Origin: Myxococcales bacterium
Lineage (GTDB): Bacteria > Myxococcota > Polyangia > Polyangiales > Polyangiaceae
Direction of reading: 5' to 3'
DNA: 8,298 nt
Assembly (NCBI GenBank): GCA_020430865.1
Contig: JAGQIY010000035.1
Location: 1-8,298 of the forward strand
Under the pieces are notes generated by a model that was given only the letters and a program-made list of their open reading frames with translations, did no database searches and had not been told where the DNA came from. Positions 1-8,298 of this stretch are shown here, one piece after another (the stretch's first letter is position 1; every line of letters begins with the position of its first letter). Position numbers and translations under genes: made by a program.

Positions 1-797
1 CGGTAACTTTCGATGCGGGACAGACCCTCGTCGAGCTGGACACTGCGTTCCTGGCCAGGCGCCTCGCCGAGCGCGGAGTTCGGGCAGAGGTCGAGCGGCT
101 CGACGAGAGCACGCCCCTCGCCTGGAGCGAGTACGCCGCCGCCATGGCCGCGGCCGAAGGCGGAGAGCAAGCCTGGAAGCGCTTCATGCAGCGCCTGCTC
201 GCCGCGGCGGAGATCGTGCCTCACCCCCGGCCCCGAGGAGAGCAAGGCCAGGGGCTCGACGAGCGCGAGCGGCTCGCGGCGGAGCTGACCGAGTGGCTAT
301 GGGAGGAGCAGCCGAGGCAGAACCTGTGGCGCCGGCCGGTGCGCGGGATGTTCGAGCTGGCGCGCGAGCTGCGTGAACATCGCATCCCCGTTGGCATCCT
401 CAGCAATTCCGAAGGGAAACTCGAGCTGCTGATCGAAGAGCTCGGACAGCTGGACGCCTTCGACACCATCACCGACTCCGGCGTGGTGGGTTGCGAGAAG
501 CCGGATCCGGCGATCTTTCGCCTGACAGCCGCAGCGCTCGGGGTCGAGCCCGCGGAGCTGCTGCACGTCGGAGACTCCTTCGAGGCGGATATCCGCGGGG
601 CGCTGGGGGTGGGAGCCGACGCGATCTGGTTCAACGGCGCGGGCTTCGAGGCGCCGCCTCCGAGCGCGAGCGGATTCGAGCCTGTGCGCGAGGAGCCGGC
701 GTCGGATCCCAGGCTGCCAACCTCGCTGCCCAGCGTGCGCCGGGCGACGACGGCCTTCGAGCTGCGGGAGCACTTCTGCGAGCTCGGGCTGCTGTGA
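1..797 (+). CDS. HAD-superfamily hydrolase, 5'-truncated by the window edge
   Basis: Haloacid-dehalogenase-type hydrolase, probably a cytoplasmic phosphatase acting on a small phosphorylated metabolite; the substrate cannot be read from the sequence. The frame is open from base 3, so the true start is upstream and the first ATG in the window (144) is internal. Motif I is F-D-A-G-Q-T-L, with the nucleophile Asp codon at 12-14. Here the usual second Asp is replaced (D-A-G-Q-T rather than D-x-D-x-T), as in many DxGxT-type HAD members. Motif II is the Ser of I-L-S-N-S (codon 402-404), motif III the Lys of C-E-K-P-D-P (498-500), and motif IV is H-V-G-D-S-F-E-A-D-I (Asp codons 573-575 and 588-590). 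The helical stretch between motifs I and II fits a C1-type cap. About 65 residues follow motif IV, giving a slightly long tail. The stop lies 87 bases before proC on the same strand, so co-transcription is possible but unproven. Confidence 0.9.
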   Translation, partial: VTFDAGQTLVELDTAFLARRLAERGVRAEVERLDESTPLAWSEYAAAMAAAEGGEQAWKRFMQRLLAAAEIVPHPRPRGEQGQGLDERERLAAELTEWLWEEQPRQNLWRRPVRGMFELARELREHRIPVGILSNSEGKLELLIEELGQLDAFDTITDSGVVGCEKPDPAIFRLTAAALGVEPAELLHVGDSFEADIRGALGVGADAIWFNGAGFEAPPPSASGFEPVREEPASDPRLPTSLPSVRRATTAFELREHFCELGLL

Positions 798-1792: not shown

Positions 1793-3622
1793 ATGTCTCC
1801 CCTGACCTCGACGGCCCGTCCGTCGCTCGCGTTCTTGCTTGGTGTGTTGAGCCTTGGTGCAGGCTGCCATGTGCGCGGCGCCGAGGCTCCGGATCCGCTC
1901 GCCGACTTGCAGCGGGATCCGGCCGGCGTCGTGCGCCGAGTGGCGGAGCTCCGAGGCCTGCCGGAGCGGCGCCCGACGCAGCTGATCTTCCAGGACGAGG
2001 CCGCCTTCATCCGCGATCTGGAGTCCGGCGGCGCCGCGCGGCCAACGGCTTCGGACTACCGCAGCGTCTACTCGGCATTTGGCTTCGACTTGCCGTCGGA
2101 AGCCAAGGGCACCTCGCCGCGCCAGGTGATGCACGAGCAGGTGATCGCGTTCTACGACCCGGACACTCACAGCGTGCACGTGCGCAAGAACGCCGGCGCC
2201 CTGAAACAGACCGCGGAAGACGTGAAGGGGATCGTCGCCCACGAGCTGGGGCACTCGCTGCAGCATCAGCATTTTCCCATCCCCAAGGTCGAGGACATGA
2301 GCGACCTCGACCAGCGGCTGGCATCGATGGCGCTGATCGAGGGCGACGCGATGCTGACCATGGTCGCTTACCTCGCGGATCTGAACCACATCAACCTGAA
2401 CCGCGCCCTGGTCGAGTCCGGCAAGGCCGTGAACCGTCGGGACACCGAGCGCGCCGCGGAAGGCACCGCGGACTCGGTCGCCCTGATGCGTTCGCCTGGC
2501 TTGATGCGAGAGCGCATGATCTTCCCCTACACTCAGGGGCTGACCTTCCTCACGGCGCTGCACCGCAGCGGCGGCTTCCCGCTGGTCAACCAGGTGTACT
2601 CCTCGCCGCCCAGCACCACCGAGCAGGTGCTGCACCCAGGCAAGTACGTTTCCGGGGAGCAAGCGGTGCCCGTCGCGTTCCCCGGGGTACCGCAAGGCTG
2701 GCAGCTCGGCCTGCGAGGCCGCATGGGAGAGCTGCAGACCCGCGTGATCCTGGAGAACTGCATGGACAAGGCCATCGCGACCCGCGCCGCCGCGGGCTGG
2801 GGAGGCGACGAGTTCATGCTGATCGAGCGCCAGGGCCTCGCGCTGGTCTGGCTGAGCGTCTGGGACACGCCAAGGGACGCCGAGGAGTTCGAGCTCGCGG
2901 CGCGCTCACTGGCCCAGTGCTGGGCGACCAAGCCCGGAGGCGCGCTGACGTCGGGAGTCGGTCAGGGCGAGCTGGTGCGGCGCAGCGGCCAGAGCGTCGC
3001 CATGATCCGCGGCATGAGCACGAGCGAGCGCGAACAGCTGGCGACGGCCAGCCTGGAGCTGACTTTCGCATCGCCCCAGGCGTCGCCGCCCCTCGGCCAG
3101 GTGGCGCTGCGGCCTATCCCCGAGGAACCAAGAGTCCACGCCCCCTACGTCTCCGAGAACGTGTACGTGAACCCCCGGCTCGGTATCAGCCTGCCGATGC
3201 CGCCCGGCTACACCTACAAGCTCGATGGTGACGAGCTGTCCCTCGATGCGCAGAGCGGCGTGGGCTCCATGCACGTCGGCCTCAGCGAGTGGGAGGTGAC
3301 CCAGGACAGCCTGGCGCACCTCTACGACGAGTTCGAGTCGGTGCTCAGCAAGGAGATCGGCCGTGGCGTGCGGCTCGCCGTGGAACAGAACTCGGAATAC
3401 GTGACGACCCTGGGCCGCGCCGTGACCCGCACCTGGTCCGTGCGCGGCACGCCGGTGCGCATCCGCTTGATCGTGCTACCGGTGTGTGGCTCCACGGGAG
3501 CCGTCATCCTCAGCAACGTCTGGTCAGAGCAGAACGCCTTCGACATGGCCACCTGGTGGGTCAACGGTCTACGCCGTATCTCCGCGGATATGCCTCCGGT
3601 GTGCAGCTACTTGAATCCGTAG
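1793..3622 (+). CDS. Predicted lipoprotein zinc metallopeptidase (HExxH)
   Basis: A 609-residue protein, probably an envelope lipoprotein with peptidase activity. Residues 1-25 form a signal peptide with hydrophobic core L-A-F-L-L-G-V-L-S-L and lipobox L-G-A-G-C (Cys25); the -3 residue is Gly, which is not canonical. The zinc motif H-E-L-G-H is at 150-154 (A-H-E-L-G-H-S-L-Q-H-Q-H). A downstream L-I-E-G-D-A at 181-186 supplies a likely third ligand Glu183, giving a gluzincin-like layout. A conserved-looking S-P-P-S-T-T-E-Q-V-L-H-P-G-K-Y block is at 271-285, and A-A-G-W-G-G-D-E at 333-340 is followed by a W-D-T-P-x-D-A-E-E-F element. I recognise this combination as recurring in uncharacterised bacterial proteins with an H-E-x-x-H-x-x-Q-D/H-Q-H-F pattern. 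The C-terminal part (about 455-607) looks like a separate mixed alpha/beta domain of unknown role. The ATG at 1793 is preceded by GAAGG (1776-1780), 12 bases away. That site could pair with CCTTC at 1763-1767, so initiation may be weak. Substrate unknown. Confidence 0.9.
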   Translation: MSPLTSTARPSLAFLLGVLSLGAGCHVRGAEAPDPLADLQRDPAGVVRRVAELRGLPERRPTQLIFQDEAAFIRDLESGGAARPTASDYRSVYSAFGFDLPSEAKGTSPRQVMHEQVIAFYDPDTHSVHVRKNAGALKQTAEDVKGIVAHELGHSLQHQHFPIPKVEDMSDLDQRLASMALIEGDAMLTMVAYLADLNHINLNRALVESGKAVNRRDTERAAEGTADSVALMRSPGLMRERMIFPYTQGLTFLTALHRSGGFPLVNQVYSSPPSTTEQVLHPGKYVSGEQAVPVAFPGVPQGWQLGLRGRMGELQTRVILENCMDKAIATRAAAGWGGDEFMLIERQGLALVWLSVWDTPRDAEEFELAARSLAQCWATKPGGALTSGVGQGELVRRSGQSVAMIRGMSTSEREQLATASLELTFASPQASPPLGQVALRPIPEEPRVHAPYVSENVYVNPRLGISLPMPPGYTYKLDGDELSLDAQSGVGSMHVGLSEWEVTQDSLAHLYDEFESVLSKEIGRGVRLAVEQNSEYVTTLGRAVTRTWSVRGTPVRIRLIVLPVCGSTGAVILSNVWSEQNAFDMATWWVNGLRRISADMPPVCSYLNP

Positions 3623-3672: not shown

Positions 3673-4311
3673 ATGCGGCTGGGTGGTTTGCGCATCGACC
3701 GGCAGAGGTTCCTCACGCTGACCTGCGCGCTGGCCGCCTCTCACGGATGCGTATCGAGGGAGAAGGCTCGGCCAGCTTCGACGCTGCTGGTCGCTCCGCG
3801 CCCAGAGGAAGACGAACAGCCTCCGCCGGCACGGAGCTTGGCGAGCCGCTGCGACACGCTGGCTCCCTGTGCGGACGCCCACATCGACGACCAGCCATCA
3901 CAGCGAGCCGAGTTGTGTCACTGGATGGTAGCCGAGTTCCTGCCCGACGTTGCAGCGCGAGGCATCCGCTGCCTGGAGCAACAACCCGCGGCTTGCGACG
4001 CTTCGGACTGCGCAGTCGACGTCGAGCGCTGCGCCTGGGTAGCGTTCGAGAACGTTCGTCCCACCGATACGGAAGAGTGCGACCGCATGACTCCGCCCAA
4101 GGCGGAGCGGTCGCGTCTTTCGACGAAGGCGCGACACGCGAACGAGTACCGCAAGGCGAACTGCCGACGCTTCACTCCCGGTATGACGGCCACCGGCCGT
4201 CAACGCTTCGCGAGCTGCTTGGCCGCGGAGCTCTATCCTGATGCAAGCACGTGCCTGTGGCCCGAGCAGCTCTGTCGCCCGCTGACTCCTCCGTCCTGGC
4301 TCGAGAGTTGA
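3673..4311 (+). CDS. Exported cysteine-rich protein of unknown function
   Basis: A 212-residue protein I cannot assign to a family. The ATG at 3673 is chosen because it gives an export signal. R-I-D-R-Q-R-F-L-T-L (7-16) resembles a Tat motif with the second Arg replaced by Gln. It is followed by a hydrophobic run and A-S-H-G-C with Cys26, which is only a poor lipobox (His at -2). An ORF in the same frame stays open upstream to 3289, but that part overlaps the peptidase gene and is a shadow. Residues 35-55 are Pro/Glu-rich and probably a flexible linker. Fourteen cysteines occur, twelve of them after Cys26, an even number that fits disulfides outside the cytoplasm. A C-x17-C-L motif appears twice, at Cys82/Cys100 and Cys164/Cys182, each followed by two further cysteines. 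The Shine-Dalgarno is weak (GAG directly before the ATG). It starts 50 bases after the peptidase gene, so translation may depend on a shared transcript. Confidence 0.75.
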   Translation: MRLGGLRIDRQRFLTLTCALAASHGCVSREKARPASTLLVAPRPEEDEQPPPARSLASRCDTLAPCADAHIDDQPSQRAELCHWMVAEFLPDVAARGIRCLEQQPAACDASDCAVDVERCAWVAFENVRPTDTEECDRMTPPKAERSRLSTKARHANEYRKANCRRFTPGMTATGRQRFASCLAAELYPDASTCLWPEQLCRPLTPPSWLES

Positions 4312-4489: not shown

Positions 4490-7423
4490 CTACTCGGTCC
4501 ACTCGATCTCGGTCTCGGGCATCGTGCGGTAGCGGGTGTCGATCTCGTCGACCAGCTCCATCCACCAGCTCTCGATCTTGGGGCCCTTCTCACGCACGGA
4601 GTCCGTGAAGAAGGTGCCGCGGATGCACTCGGCTTCCTCACCCGAGGCGTTGGGGCGACAGCGACCGTCGACGTAGACGAGGATCGCCTCTGGCAAGCGC
4701 GAGGCCGAGGAATCGACCGGGCTGTTCATCCAGTTCCGCAAGAAGACGATGGCCGCCTTCAGATCCTCCGGGGTCTGCCCGTAGCCGTGCAGCATGTAGA
4801 TGACCGGGTAGCGCTTGTCCTGCGCCTTCTTGTTGGAGTAGCCGGGCGGGAAGTTGACGCTGACCGGACCCGAGCGACCACGAGAGTCGGTGAAGGTGAA
4901 GTCACAGCCACCGCGGATCTCGCAGATGTCCGCGCCGTCGACGGGATCGATCTCGGAGGCTTCGGACAGACCGCGCGGCGCGTCCGGCCAGTGGGAACCA
5001 ATGTAGTAGAGCGCGGACTGCAGGCGCCGCACGATCTGATCGGCAGTCCCGACGTGCTGACCGCTGCCGGAGTTGAAGTCGGCGTCCGTCGGCTCGGTCG
5101 AGCCGTAGCGCATCATCACGCCGCCGGGGATCGACGGCCAGTCGAGGTGTCCCGCCGAGAACAGGGACACGTCACCCAGCTTCTGCCCTGGGAGCTTGTC
5201 GAAGCCGGTGTAGTAGTGAACGATGCGCCCGCGCCCGGCCCAGCTGCCCATCATCGCCTGAGCCGAGACGGCGAAGTTGAACAGGTCACGGGTTCCACCG
5301 TCGGTCCACAGGTCCATGCGCGCCATCGCCGCGTCGTCGAACGGCTCCTTCTGCGTGCCCAGCGGGTCCTGCGTAATTACCGTACGAGAATCGCGCTCGA
5401 GGAAGGCCTTGTAGCCCGGCGACATATCGTACTTGCCGTTGCCTTCACCGAAGTCGTAGGGGCTGCTCGCGGTGCCCTGGACGCCGTCCAGGCCGTAGTC
5501 CTCGTAGGGCTCGCCCTCGTCGTAGCGCAGGTTGCCCTCGGTGCCCGTCGGGTTGTACTGGGGGTTCCAGTCGTCACCATTGGGGTCTTCATTGACGCCC
5601 GCCTGGTAGCCAGGCTCGTCCACGTTGGCCAGCCCGTCGACGCCGAGGTCCTCGAACCGCTCGTGGCCCTGGAAGATCACCGGCTCGTCTTCGTCGCGAA
5701 CACCGTTGTCGTTGTAGTCGACGGCCAGCGCCAGCTCCATCGGCTTGTTGTTGCTCTGATCCGACCAGGTGTTCGCGTAAGGCGTCAGGTCCGGCTGCTG
5801 CGGCGAACCATCGCAGAAGGTGATCACCGGGAAGGTGCCGTTCGGATTGAAGTCGTGGTCGAAGTAGTTGGTCAGGCGCAGTGTGTTGGCGCAGCGCTGC
5901 GCTGGGCACTGCTGCTCCAGCTCCTTCTGGTGAGCCTCGTTCGGGTCGTCGCCAATGGGATCGACCCACACCGCACACTCGCGATCCGTGCGATCGCCGA
6001 CCACGCTCGGATCATCCGGCGGCACGCCTGCCGGCAGGTTCTCGCCGCCTGGCATCTGGTTGTAGCTGCCCGGATTGCCGAACATCAGCGACAGATCGCG
6101 GAAGATCTGCACGTACTCCGAGCGCGGGAACGAGCCGCCGTTTCCGTTCTTCGGGTACTCGTACCACCAGCGATTGAACGACGAGGGGTGCTCGTAAGGC
6201 AGCTTGGTCTCGGGGAACTCCGGGAAACCAGTGGGCACCGTGGTGCCATCGTTGGGCAGGAAGCCGCCGATGTGGTTGTTGCGAATGTGCCCGAGCAGCC
6301 ACGTCCACTCGACCGGCCCACCCAGGGGAGCCAGCACGTCGAACTTCTCGTGGTTGCGGAAGCCAGTCATCGCAGTGCCGCCGCCGCCCATGCTGACGCC
6401 GACGATCGCGCGGTGGGTGATGCGGCGCTTCTTGGTCACCGTGCCGCCGTCGCTCTTGACGATCGCCTGGTAGGTTCCGAGCCACGGCGCCTGGAAGTAG
6501 AGCTTGTAGCCGTCGCCGTCCTCGATGATGCGCGGGTCCGCGATCGGGATGGCACGCGGGGTCTTCACGTTGGGTCCGGTGTACGAGACCGTCACGTGGC
6601 GCAGCCTCGCCATCTCCGGCATGGCCGCGGGGTTGATCGGGATGGTGAAGGGAATTTCCCTCGGGAATTTCTTGTCCGCAGGACCGAACGTCACGGCGGG
6701 GCCCAGCTTGGTGAAGCCGGTCGGCACCTGGTCTGCCGCGCAGCCGATCGTCGCGTCGAACGCCGAGACCGACCAGATGAAGCTGTTCTTGTTGGGCATC
6801 GTGGCGTTCTTCGGGTACCCAACGGACGCCAGTGCGAGGCCACCGCTGCCGCTCACGGTGCCGCCGTCGTCCACTTTCCCGGAGCCCGACCCGCTGCAGT
6901 CAGCGATGTCAGCGCTGATCACGTTGACCGGGATATCGATGGTGACGTCGCCGTCTTCCGTGGGGAACAGCGCCTTGATGGTCGTCTTGCCCGCGGCGCT
7001 CGCGGTGACATCCACCTTGGCCGTCGGCGTCACCAGGTCGATACGCGCGTCTCCGGGTGCAGCCGCGACGCTGGTGTCAGACGACTCGAACTTCATCATC
7101 CGCACGTCGCAGATGTCGGGATCCACGGTGATCTCCACCTGCCGCGTCTGCCCGGGCGCCAACACGACGGACTCCGGACTGACCCTCAGCTTGATCTGGC
7201 TCGCCTCGGGGTCGAAGCATTGTTCGCCGGGTTTCGGCTGAGGGACGCCACCGACGCCCGCGGTGCCTCCCGTGCCTCCGGCAGCGCCAGTTCCACCGCT
7301 GCCACCGCTACCTCCGCCACCGCTGGGCCCGTCGTCGGACGAACAGCTGACGCCGGCCAGGGCCGTAAAGAGAGACACGACGGCGACGGCGCCGACACGT
7401 AGGCGATGAGAGCTAAGCTTCAC
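4490..7423 (-). CDS. Large lipoprotein esterase (PF00756-like alpha/beta hydrolase), apparently circularly permuted
   Basis: A 977-residue predicted lipoprotein carboxylesterase, acting in the periplasm or at the outer surface; substrate unknown. The start is GTG at 7423, with GGAGGA 7 bases upstream. It gives a basic n-region, a hydrophobic core and Cys27 in A-G-V-S-C, an imperfect lipobox. The frame stays open 67 codons further upstream to an ATG at 7624, but that start would bury the signal peptide. Domains in order: a Gly/Ser/Thr linker (33-60); an Ig-like beta domain (about 75-170); a second beta-rich region (180-325) with a G-P-A-V-T-F-G-P-A-D run recalling ZU5-type domains; the nucleophile elbow H-R-A-I-V-G-V-S-M-G-G (337-347, Ser344); a large insert with acidic EF-hand-like loops (568-668); a candidate catalytic His790 (S-G-Q-H-V-G) followed by a helix; and last the block that normally opens an esterase, with V-N-F-P-P-G-Y (856-861), Y-P-V-I-Y-M-L-H-G-Y-G (872-882) and E-L-V-D-E-I-D-T-R-Y-R-T (956-967). 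I could not place the catalytic acid. Confidence 0.9.
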   Translation of the reverse strand: MKLSSHRLRVGAVAVVSLFTALAGVSCSSDDGPSGGGGSGGSGGTGAAGGTGGTAGVGGVPQPKPGEQCFDPEASQIKLRVSPESVVLAPGQTRQVEITVDPDICDVRMMKFESSDTSVAAAPGDARIDLVTPTAKVDVTASAAGKTTIKALFPTEDGDVTIDIPVNVISADIADCSGSGSGKVDDGGTVSGSGGLALASVGYPKNATMPNKNSFIWSVSAFDATIGCAADQVPTGFTKLGPAVTFGPADKKFPREIPFTIPINPAAMPEMARLRHVTVSYTGPNVKTPRAIPIADPRIIEDGDGYKLYFQAPWLGTYQAIVKSDGGTVTKKRRITHRAIVGVSMGGGGTAMTGFRNHEKFDVLAPLGGPVEWTWLLGHIRNNHIGGFLPNDGTTVPTGFPEFPETKLPYEHPSSFNRWWYEYPKNGNGGSFPRSEYVQIFRDLSLMFGNPGSYNQMPGGENLPAGVPPDDPSVVGDRTDRECAVWVDPIGDDPNEAHQKELEQQCPAQRCANTLRLTNYFDHDFNPNGTFPVITFCDGSPQQPDLTPYANTWSDQSNNKPMELALAVDYNDNGVRDEDEPVIFQGHERFEDLGVDGLANVDEPGYQAGVNEDPNGDDWNPQYNPTGTEGNLRYDEGEPYEDYGLDGVQGTASSPYDFGEGNGKYDMSPGYKAFLERDSRTVITQDPLGTQKEPFDDAAMARMDLWTDGGTRDLFNFAVSAQAMMGSWAGRGRIVHYYTGFDKLPGQKLGDVSLFSAGHLDWPSIPGGVMMRYGSTEPTDADFNSGSGQHVGTADQIVRRLQSALYYIGSHWPDAPRGLSEASEIDPVDGADICEIRGGCDFTFTDSRGRSGPVSVNFPPGYSNKKAQDKRYPVIYMLHGYGQTPEDLKAAIVFLRNWMNSPVDSSASRLPEAILVYVDGRCRPNASGEEAECIRGTFFTDSVREKGPKIESWWMELVDEIDTRYRTMPETEIEWTE
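5420..5722 (-). repeat. Acidic calcium-binding-like repeats inside the esterase
   Basis: This stretch encodes esterase residues 568-668. D-Y-N-D-N-G-V-R-D-E-D-E (569-580) fits a 12-position EF-hand loop, with D1, N3, N5, G6, D9 and E12. Two copies of an aromatic-E-D-x-G-[VL]-D-G unit follow, at 590-597 and 640-647. Related pieces are Y-D-E-G-E-P (634-639) and G-E-G-N-G-K-Y-D (659-666). Such D/N/G-rich units usually bind calcium in secreted bacterial proteins. Binding is inferred from family knowledge and not shown here. Confidence 0.6.
7244..7327 (-). repeat. Low-complexity Gly/Ser/Thr linker coding region
   Basis: Encodes residues 33-60 of the esterase, mostly G-G-S and G-G-T units, directly after the lipoprotein cysteine. 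It is best read as a flexible tether between lipid anchor and folded domains. The repetitive DNA could vary in length between strains. Confidence 0.8.
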
Positions 7424-7430
7424 TGGGATC

Positions 7431-7436
7431 TCCTCC
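7431..7436 (-). promoter_or_regulatory. Shine-Dalgarno that fixes the esterase GTG start
   Basis: On the minus strand GGAGGA lies 7 bases before the GTG at 7423. It is the strongest ribosome binding site in the window. It supports starting the lipoprotein here and not at the in-frame ATG 67 codons upstream. Confidence 0.85.
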
Positions 7437-7809: not shown

Positions 7810-7898
7810 TGCTGTCGCTCAGCGTGTGGGAGCGCTTGGACGAGCGCGCCGTCACGGCGCAGGCTACTGCATATGCACGTGCCTGCTGTTGCTCAGCG
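7810..7898 (+). repeat. Imperfect 15-base direct repeat around the lipoprotein start
   Basis: TGCTGTCGCTCAGCG (7810-7824) recurs as TGCTGTTGCTCAGCG (7884-7898) with one mismatch, 74 bases apart. The second copy encodes the hydrophobic core and lipobox of the lipoprotein. The first lies just before its proposed GTG. The offset is not a multiple of three, so the copies are read in different frames. Confidence 0.5.
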
Positions 7899-8298
7899 GC
7901 TGCGGCGGACGGCATGTCTCCCAAGCCGTGAGCCCGACGGACTTACCGCGGATTGCTGACGACTACCGAGACGGCTACGTACGACTGGAGAGCGGAGAAC
8001 GGATCCCCACCAGTCGGCTCAGCGAGGCCAAGCTCACCCTTCAGGCTTCCTGCGACGACTGGCGGCAAGAGCTGCATCGCGCCCAGTGCGGCGACGTCTC
8101 CCTCCCACTCGCCGAGCTGGGGAGCGATCGAGATCAGCTCACCCCGAATCGCAGTGAACCCTGGGCGATGGGCGGTCTGCGAGTCAGCGACGTCAGCCAC
8201 GCGAGCCTCGAGCTGGAGCTGGCGGGGTACGACCGGCTCGAAGAGCCGACGTTCGGCGTGGGTTCCACCTTCCTCGGTCCCGCGCTGTTCGCCACGTA
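7826..8298 (+). CDS. Lipoprotein of unknown function, truncated at the right edge
   Basis: The first 157 codons of a predicted lipoprotein, open to the window end. No ATG precedes the signal peptide in this frame after the stop at 7718-7720, so the best start is GTG at 7826. This gives a basic n-region (G-R-A-R-R-H), a hydrophobic core and a canonical lipobox L-L-L-L-S-G-C with Cys26. No clear Shine-Dalgarno precedes it, so the exact start is uncertain while the frame is well supported. The mature part begins C-G-G-R-H and contains D-Y-R-D-G-Y-V-R-L-E-S-G, then two cysteines (A-S-C-D-D-W and A-Q-C-G-D) that could pair. Near the edge it has a Gly-rich hydrophobic stretch (G-V-G-S-T-F-L-G-P-A-L-F) that might begin a membrane segment. 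I do not recognise the family. It is transcribed away from the esterase across the 402-base gap. Confidence 0.7.
   Translation, partial: MGALGRARRHGAGYCICTCLLLLSGCGGRHVSQAVSPTDLPRIADDYRDGYVRLESGERIPTSRLSEAKLTLQASCDDWRQELHRAQCGDVSLPLAELGSDRDQLTPNRSEPWAMGGLRVSDVSHASLELELAGYDRLEEPTFGVGSTFLGPALFAT

What the first reader, a model, noticed from the sequence alone, without database searches (positions are those of the whole stretch)
4490..7423. Esterase with apparently circularly permuted alpha/beta-hydrolase fold
Seen: the block Y-P-V-I-Y-M-L-H-G-Y-G ... I-L-V-Y-V-D-G ... E-L-V-D-E-I-D-T-R-Y-R-T is at residues 872-967, and the protein ends 10 residues later. The elbow R-A-I-V-G-V-S-M-G-G is at 338-347, far earlier. 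Known: in esterase-D/PF00756 enzymes the first block immediately precedes the R-A-I-A-G-L-S-M-G-G block. Inferred: the two halves have swapped order, with the new N-terminus cut between the pre-elbow helix and the elbow strand. No second elbow follows the stop in the 178 bases to the next gene, so a simple frameshift does not explain it. A duplication of the domain followed by loss of outer halves would produce this layout.
Basis: partly seen in the sequence, partly recalled or inferred. Interest (0 to 1): 0.7.

Follow-up and report, generated by a model that had tools for sequence, protein, structure and literature searches.

The report
Naturally circularly permuted myxobacterial esterase lipoprotein
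A family of predicted lipid-anchored bacterial enzymes carries the two halves of a common esterase domain in swapped order, apparently the same rearrangement that arose separately in a group of bioplastic-degrading enzymes.

The parts
4490..7423 (-). whole gene, 977 aa lipoprotein with circularly permuted alpha/beta-hydrolase domain (GTG start, TAG stop)
   Evidence: full-length homologues with the same C-terminal end
7430..7436 (-). likely ribosome-binding site GGAGGAG, 6 bases before the GTG
   Evidence: read directly from sequence
7343..7423 (-). signal peptide with lipobox cysteine Cys27 (residues 1-27)
   Evidence: sequence; Cys27 in 91 of 92 rows of A1; no signal-peptide predictor was run
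6968..7186 (-). Big_2 Ig-like domain, residues 80-152
6440..6895 (-). second beta-rich domain, residues 177-328
4988..6439 (-). first part of the permuted hydrolase, residues 329-812: strand 5, elbow, strand 6, cap, strands 7 and 8, last helix
   Evidence: model secondary structure, (strand numbers are my assignment); profile match to canonical columns 150-188
6383..6412 (-). nucleophile elbow RAIVGVSMGG, residues 338-347, Ser344
5324..6316 (-). large cap insertion between strands 6 and 7, residues 370-700, rich in invariant Asp/Glu (probably calcium-binding)
   Evidence: invariant D569, E588, D592, D596, D613, D617, E629, D642, D646, D657; calcium binding is inference
5285..5287 (-). Asp713, proposed catalytic acid after strand 7 (DGGTRD)
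   Evidence: D in 92 of 92 and 86 of 86 aligned sequences; position by analogy, profile match there not significant
5054..5056 (-). His790, proposed catalytic histidine after strand 8 (GSGQHVGT)
   Evidence: H in 92 of 92 and 86 of 86
4493..4987 (-). second part of the permuted hydrolase, residues 813-977: linker, strands 1-4, helices A and B
4778..4810 (-). oxyanion block YPVIYMLHGYG, residues 872-882
4526..4576 (-). helix B with ELVDEIDTRYR, residues 950-966, the seam to the elbow strand in ordinary esterases

Best explanation
The gene encodes an exported lipoprotein that carries an alpha/beta-hydrolase (PF00756/CE1-like esterase) domain circularly permuted at the loop between helix B and strand 5. 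The polypeptide starts the domain at the elbow strand, runs through strands 6-8 to the catalytic His, and then makes strands 1-4 and helices A and B last. Folded, it is one ordinary catalytic core. Ser344 attacks the ester, Asp713 and His790 complete the triad, and the oxyanion is held by backbone amides at Met345 and in the H879-G880-Y881-G882 loop. A ~330-residue acidic cap sits between strands 6 and 7. Shown: order, conservation, seam, predicted fold. Inferred: catalysis, residue roles, calcium binding, surface location. Unknown: substrate. The permutation is shared by both subfamilies and probably independent of the one in type-2 PHA depolymerases.
Against: No activity data exist. The Asp713/His790 part has no significant profile match to canonical esterases (probability 0.7%), and Asp569 is equally invariant. 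Foldseek alone gave no hit at E <= 0.001. On single sequences the Pfam gain from re-ordering is small: window 26.3 to 29.6 bits; P0134 30.3 to 35.3 bits with the hit still in two stretches. The survey of 250 is drawn from the top-120 lists of searches with permuted queries, which favour the same order. Independence from type-2 enzymes rests on three type-2 sequences plus NF050059 searches of six genomes.
Confidence: 0.87

Rival explanations
1. The family is a diverged branch of the type-2 extracellular PHA depolymerases, sharing one ancestral permutation rather than an independent one.
For: Same element order, and 2d81/2d80 is the only full-length structural match among the chains compared. 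One member carries a database name 'poly(3-hydroxybutyrate) depolymerase' (P0220).
Against: NF050059 (e_dPHAscl_type2) finds none of the permuted loci in 6 of 6 genomes at E <= 10 (only candidates of a loose first look were scored). Profile probability is 1.6% to type 2 versus 98.7% to canonical PF00756. 2d80 is absent from 52 PDB hits at E <= 10, whereas non-collinear CE1 esterases lead them. Type 2 matches type-1-like sequences strongly, pointing to its own origin.
Confidence: 0.07
2. The protein folds as a hydrolase scaffold but is catalytically dead or works as a binding or structural lipoprotein.
For: Very large acidic insertion and two beta-rich N-terminal domains; no activity data.
Against: Ser344, Asp713, His790, His879 and Gly880 are invariant in 92 of 92 and 86 of 86 aligned sequences.
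Confidence: 0.08
3. The layout is a truncated tandem: a broken or mis-assembled gene that has lost a C-terminal elbow half.
For: The block order alone would look like this in a single genome.
Against: 250 of 250 listed proteins with both blocks share it and end within 55 residues of the block; the core gives one high-confidence single-domain model.
Confidence: 0.01
4. Residues 840-977 are an independent add-on domain, and 329-812 is a complete but divergent hydrolase.
For: Unpermuted hydrolases align to the first ~490 core residues.
Against: 813-977 matches canonical columns 26-147 with E 7.3e-20, and the 2d81 alignment spans model 7..638, thus both parts.
Confidence: 0.03

Closest known systems
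Type-2 extracellular PHA depolymerases (NF050059; Penicillium funiculosum PHB depolymerase, 2d80/2d81)
   Different: No sequence relationship detected; this family has a ~330-residue cap. Type 2 itself matches type-1-like sequences in swapped blocks.
CE1/PF00756 feruloyl and acetyl-xylan esterases (7xrt BT_4077, 5vol, 1jjf XynZ)
   Same: Closest by sequence: 7xrt E 4.9e-19, 1jjf E 1.5e-13 with the family profile; same elbow and oxyanion motifs.
   Different: Those have oxyanion block then elbow; here the order is swapped and the acid/His segment is strongly diverged with a large insertion.
Type-1 extracellular PHA depolymerases (NF050058)
   Same: Alpha/beta hydrolase with GxSxG elbow; weak elbow-only match of P0134 and P0239.
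   Different: Unpermuted; profile match not significant (1.5% in native order, 12.2% re-ordered).
Engineered circular permutants of lipase B and RhEst1
   Same: Alpha/beta hydrolases with changed connectivity (CalB-cp283 described in PMC8540959, passages seen; RhEst1 seen only as a reference in PMC11757225).
   Different: Man-made; this one is natural and family-wide.

Membership tests
PF00756 esterase (CE1-like alpha/beta hydrolase) | profile match above curated cut-off | tested here: met
   26.3 bits against 22, but only positions 5-43; family profile to 26 canonical sequences E 4.6e-25 after re-joining
PF00756 esterase (CE1-like alpha/beta hydrolase) | oxyanion block precedes the nucleophile elbow | tested here: not met
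   elbow first in 250 of 250 listed proteins with both blocks
PF00756 esterase (CE1-like alpha/beta hydrolase) | Ser-Asp-His triad with GxSxG elbow and HG oxyanion loop | tested here: inconclusive
   S344, D713, H790, H879, G880 invariant, but the Asp/His segment has no significant profile match to canonical members and no distances were measured
PF00756 esterase (CE1-like alpha/beta hydrolase) | ester hydrolysis | not testable with these tools
   no activity data
type-2 extracellular PHA depolymerase | elbow N-terminal and oxyanion hole C-terminal to the triad | tested here: met
   criterion from PMC2666664
type-2 extracellular PHA depolymerase | collinear fold with 2d80/2d81 | tested here: met
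   [not shown]
type-2 extracellular PHA depolymerase | sequence match to NF050059 | tested here: not met
   no match at the permuted loci of 6 genomes at E <= 10; hhalign probability 1.6% to three type-2 sequences
type-2 extracellular PHA depolymerase | PHB depolymerase activity | not testable with these tools
   no assay
type-2 extracellular PHA depolymerase | substrate-binding domain | not tested
   not searched for specifically
bacterial lipoprotein | N-terminal signal peptide with lipobox cysteine | tested here: met
   Cys27 in 91 of 92 rows of A1; a lipobox pattern in the first 45 residues of 84 of 120 proteins P0134-P0253; some of the rest begin late or use another pattern; no signal-peptide predictor was run

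The most novel reading that the evidence does not exclude
Nature has circularly permuted the alpha/beta-hydrolase fold at least twice, independently and at the same seam (between helix B and the elbow strand): once in PHA depolymerases and once in this large, unannotated myxobacterial esterase-lipoprotein family. That would make the seam a privileged permutation site in one of the largest enzyme folds.
Probability: 0.75. Interest if true: 0.68.

Novelty: new variant of a known kind. Interest (0 to 1): 0.62.

Why it matters
Natural circular permutants of enzymes show which connections of a fold are dispensable. A second independent event at the same loop would be evidence that alpha/beta hydrolases tolerate new termini just before the nucleophile elbow, which can be tested directly in any model esterase. 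It also points to a widespread family (972 protein clusters at E <= 0.001 in one search, of which only the listed ones were examined) that ordinary profile annotation sees, in the window's protein, only as a fragment of PF00756.

Tried and rejected
Truncation, frameshift or assembly error: rejected, because the layout is shared by 250 of 250 listed proteins with both blocks. Of the 252 scanned, two (P0095, P0122) lack one block and were set aside; P0133 had been left out as the same protein as P0134; the window's own P0001 is counted among the 250.

Whole-protein fold searches were filled by Ig-like domains and said nothing about the hydrolase; the core was therefore modelled alone. Foldseek on the core gave no hit at E <= 0.001: best 1jt2 at 5.1e-3, 2d80 fourth at 2.2e-2. 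A sequential aligner on a permuted chain with a big insertion can be expected to do poorly.

His759 (GHLDW) as catalytic His: rejected, not conserved (10 of 92 and 6 of 86). Asp569 as catalytic acid: kept as a weaker alternative, equally invariant but lying at the start of the acidic insertion.

Search for duplication intermediates (two elbows or two oxyanion blocks in one chain): none in 250. Gene neighbourhood: the flanking genes in the window (HAD hydrolase, ProC, a putative metallopeptidase) and the open frames around L001, L002 and L005 (judged by eye only) share nothing obvious, so context gave no substrate. Canonical set: of 37 loci were taken for their long profile span; L039 was then dropped because the wrong frame had been picked, leaving 26. 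Ten loci (L016-L021, L050, L058-L060) were not used; L058-L060 are themselves members of the permuted family.

Literature: nine searches showed no paper that, from its title and the start of its abstract, describes this family or a permuted PF00756 esterase. I looked at passages only of PMC11878206, PMC2666664, PMC3741128, PMC538276, PMC11757225, PMC4686048, PMC8540959, PMC4602143 and PMC9487903; the other listed papers were not opened. The library lacks most subscription papers. Hisano et al. 2006 was not read: that 2d80 was described as a permuted fold is recalled.

Full report
WHAT IS THERE. The minus strand of window 7423-4490 encodes one protein of 977 residues with a GTG start preceded by GGAGGAG. 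It has a signal peptide with a lipobox cysteine at 27, a Gly/Ser-rich linker (residues 1-57 have pLDDT below 50), a Big_2 domain at 80-152, a second beta-rich domain at about 177-328, and then a hydrolase region from 329 to the end. Pfam sees only the short oxyanion block as PF00756, positions 5-42 of 251. A single-sequence PDB search already hits feruloyl esterase XynZ (1jjf) with two stretches in swapped order.

IT IS A FAMILY TRAIT. Searches found 533 protein clusters with the whole protein as query, 972 with the hydrolase region and 452 with a distant member (overlapping, best 120 listed each). Most of the names given are 'hypothetical protein', with organisms such as Polyangiaceae, Myxococcales, Archangiaceae and Deltaproteobacteria; a few read alpha/beta hydrolase, S-formylglutathione hydrolase FrmB or poly(3-hydroxybutyrate) depolymerase. 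Of 252 distinct listed proteins (the window's included) scanned with block profiles, 250 have both blocks. The elbow is first in 250 of 250; none has two copies of either block; the median number of residues after the oxyanion/helix-B block is 11, the maximum 55. The lists are the best hits of searches with permuted queries, so this shows that the layout is shared and stable, not that no unpermuted relative exists. There are two architectures: 125 of the 250 have more than 200 residues before the elbow (as in the window), 121 have fewer than 60, and 4 lie between. In the compact homologue P0134 the lipobox cysteine is residue 14, the elbow motif starts at 26, and the chain ends YRTLR. So the chain begins the hydrolase at the elbow strand and ends it with helix B. 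Both kinds share invariant acidic residues in the insertion, so I take them as one family with one permutation. Profile A2 finds matches in 59 of 195 genomes of the phylum of G004 and 74 of 282 sampled genomes of the phylum of G005, apparently a different one (phyla are not named). Only a few candidates per genome were scored and some hits are partial, so these are rough figures.

THE SEAM. I aligned the family profile with 26 unpermuted PF00756 proteins, 25 from the phylum of G004 and one from G002. In native order there are two separate hits: the C-terminal part to canonical columns 25-147 (probability 98.7%, E 1.5e-16) and the elbow part to 150-188 (95.6%, E 1.2e-8). Joining the end of the chain to the elbow gives one hit over 26-188, E 4.6e-25, score 190.6, close to the sum of the two (199.9). 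A scan over 29 circular start points shows the same wherever both blocks stay whole and joined, and lower scores otherwise. Independently, seven loci of the family match the PF00756 profile at E <= 1e-8 only over positions 1-115 or 1-114. On single sequences the gain in Pfam score from re-joining is modest: 26.3 to 29.6 bits for the window, with the hit extended from 5-43 to 5-146, and 30.3 to 35.3 for P0134, still in two stretches.

SAME TOPOLOGY, DIFFERENT ORIGIN. By sequence the family is closest to CE1 ferulic acid esterases: 7xrt E 4.9e-19, 5vol 6.7e-14, 1jjf 1.5e-13. 2d80 is not among the 52 hits at E <= 10 although it would be collinear. The NCBI type-2 model NF050059 finds none of the permuted loci in six genomes at E <= 10 (it does find other places, most of them weak, in five of the six). 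Three of 189 genomes of the phylum of G004 hold type-2 depolymerases above the cut-off. I used three of those four places and nine sequences that look like type 1 from their block order (not checked against NF050058). Type 2 matches type 1 in two swapped blocks (probabilities 97.8% and 97.3%, seam at type-1 columns 147/149), which is a positive control for the method. The new family matches type 2 with 1.6% and type 1 with 1.5% in native order (type 1 12.2% after re-ordering), but canonical PF00756 with 98.7%. The type-2 profile also matches canonical PF00756 at the elbow (85.2%), and type 1 matches it over columns 38-183 (96.8%), so all are distant cousins. The simplest reading is two independent permutations at the same seam. 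The limits are the small type-2 sample and the unknown age of the events.

HOW IT PROBABLY WORKS. Ser344, Asp713, His790, His879 and Gly880 are present in 92 of 92 and 86 of 86 aligned sequences (overlapping sets). Ser344 is in the elbow. His790 follows strand 8. Asp713 in DGGTRD follows strand 7, where ordinary members have a similar G-x-x-D motif, although the formal profile match there is not significant (0.7%). Asp569 is also invariant but opens the acidic insertion. I therefore propose a standard acyl-enzyme ester hydrolysis on an exported lipid-anchored enzyme, with the acidic cap (many invariant Asp and Glu) binding calcium and shaping the substrate site. Order, conservation and predicted fold are shown; catalysis, roles, calcium and location are inferred; substrate is open. 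Feruloyl, acetyl-xylan and polyester esters are the first candidates.

HOW IT AROSE. No intermediate was found in the 250 chains. Tandem copies of the already permuted gene exist in two genomes, so tandem duplication of this gene does happen.

VERDICT. [quoted passage not shown]

Noticed in passing
G061:C62 11859-14015 and 14437-16593; G062:C5 9063-11246 and 12767-14950: Neighbouring tandem copies of the permuted esterase gene; a tandem of permuted copies is also a possible route back to the ordinary order.
   Followed up: no
[not shown]
   Followed up: no
window 1793-3622, + strand: 609-residue lipoprotein-like protein with HELGH motif, only a weak sub-cut-off match to DUF6782 metallopeptidases.
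   Followed up: partly
window 3751-4311 and 7826-8296, + strand: Two open frames beside the esterase gene without any Pfam match at E <= 0.1.
   Followed up: partly
L078, L079, L080 (G032, G160, G112): Type-2 PHA depolymerases above the NF050059 cut-off in the phylum of G004; type 2 against type-1-like sequences shows a seam at columns 147/149, like the 147/150 seam of the new family.
   Followed up: yes
G166:C1 1919456-1921531: A permuted copy with one in-frame TGA; pseudogene or sequencing error.
   Followed up: no
window 4493-4924 (residues 834-977): Cysteines 922 and 933 (92 of 92 rows of A1) and 834 and 840 (90 of 92 each) suggest disulfides near the new C-terminus, fitting an exported protein.
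   Followed up: no
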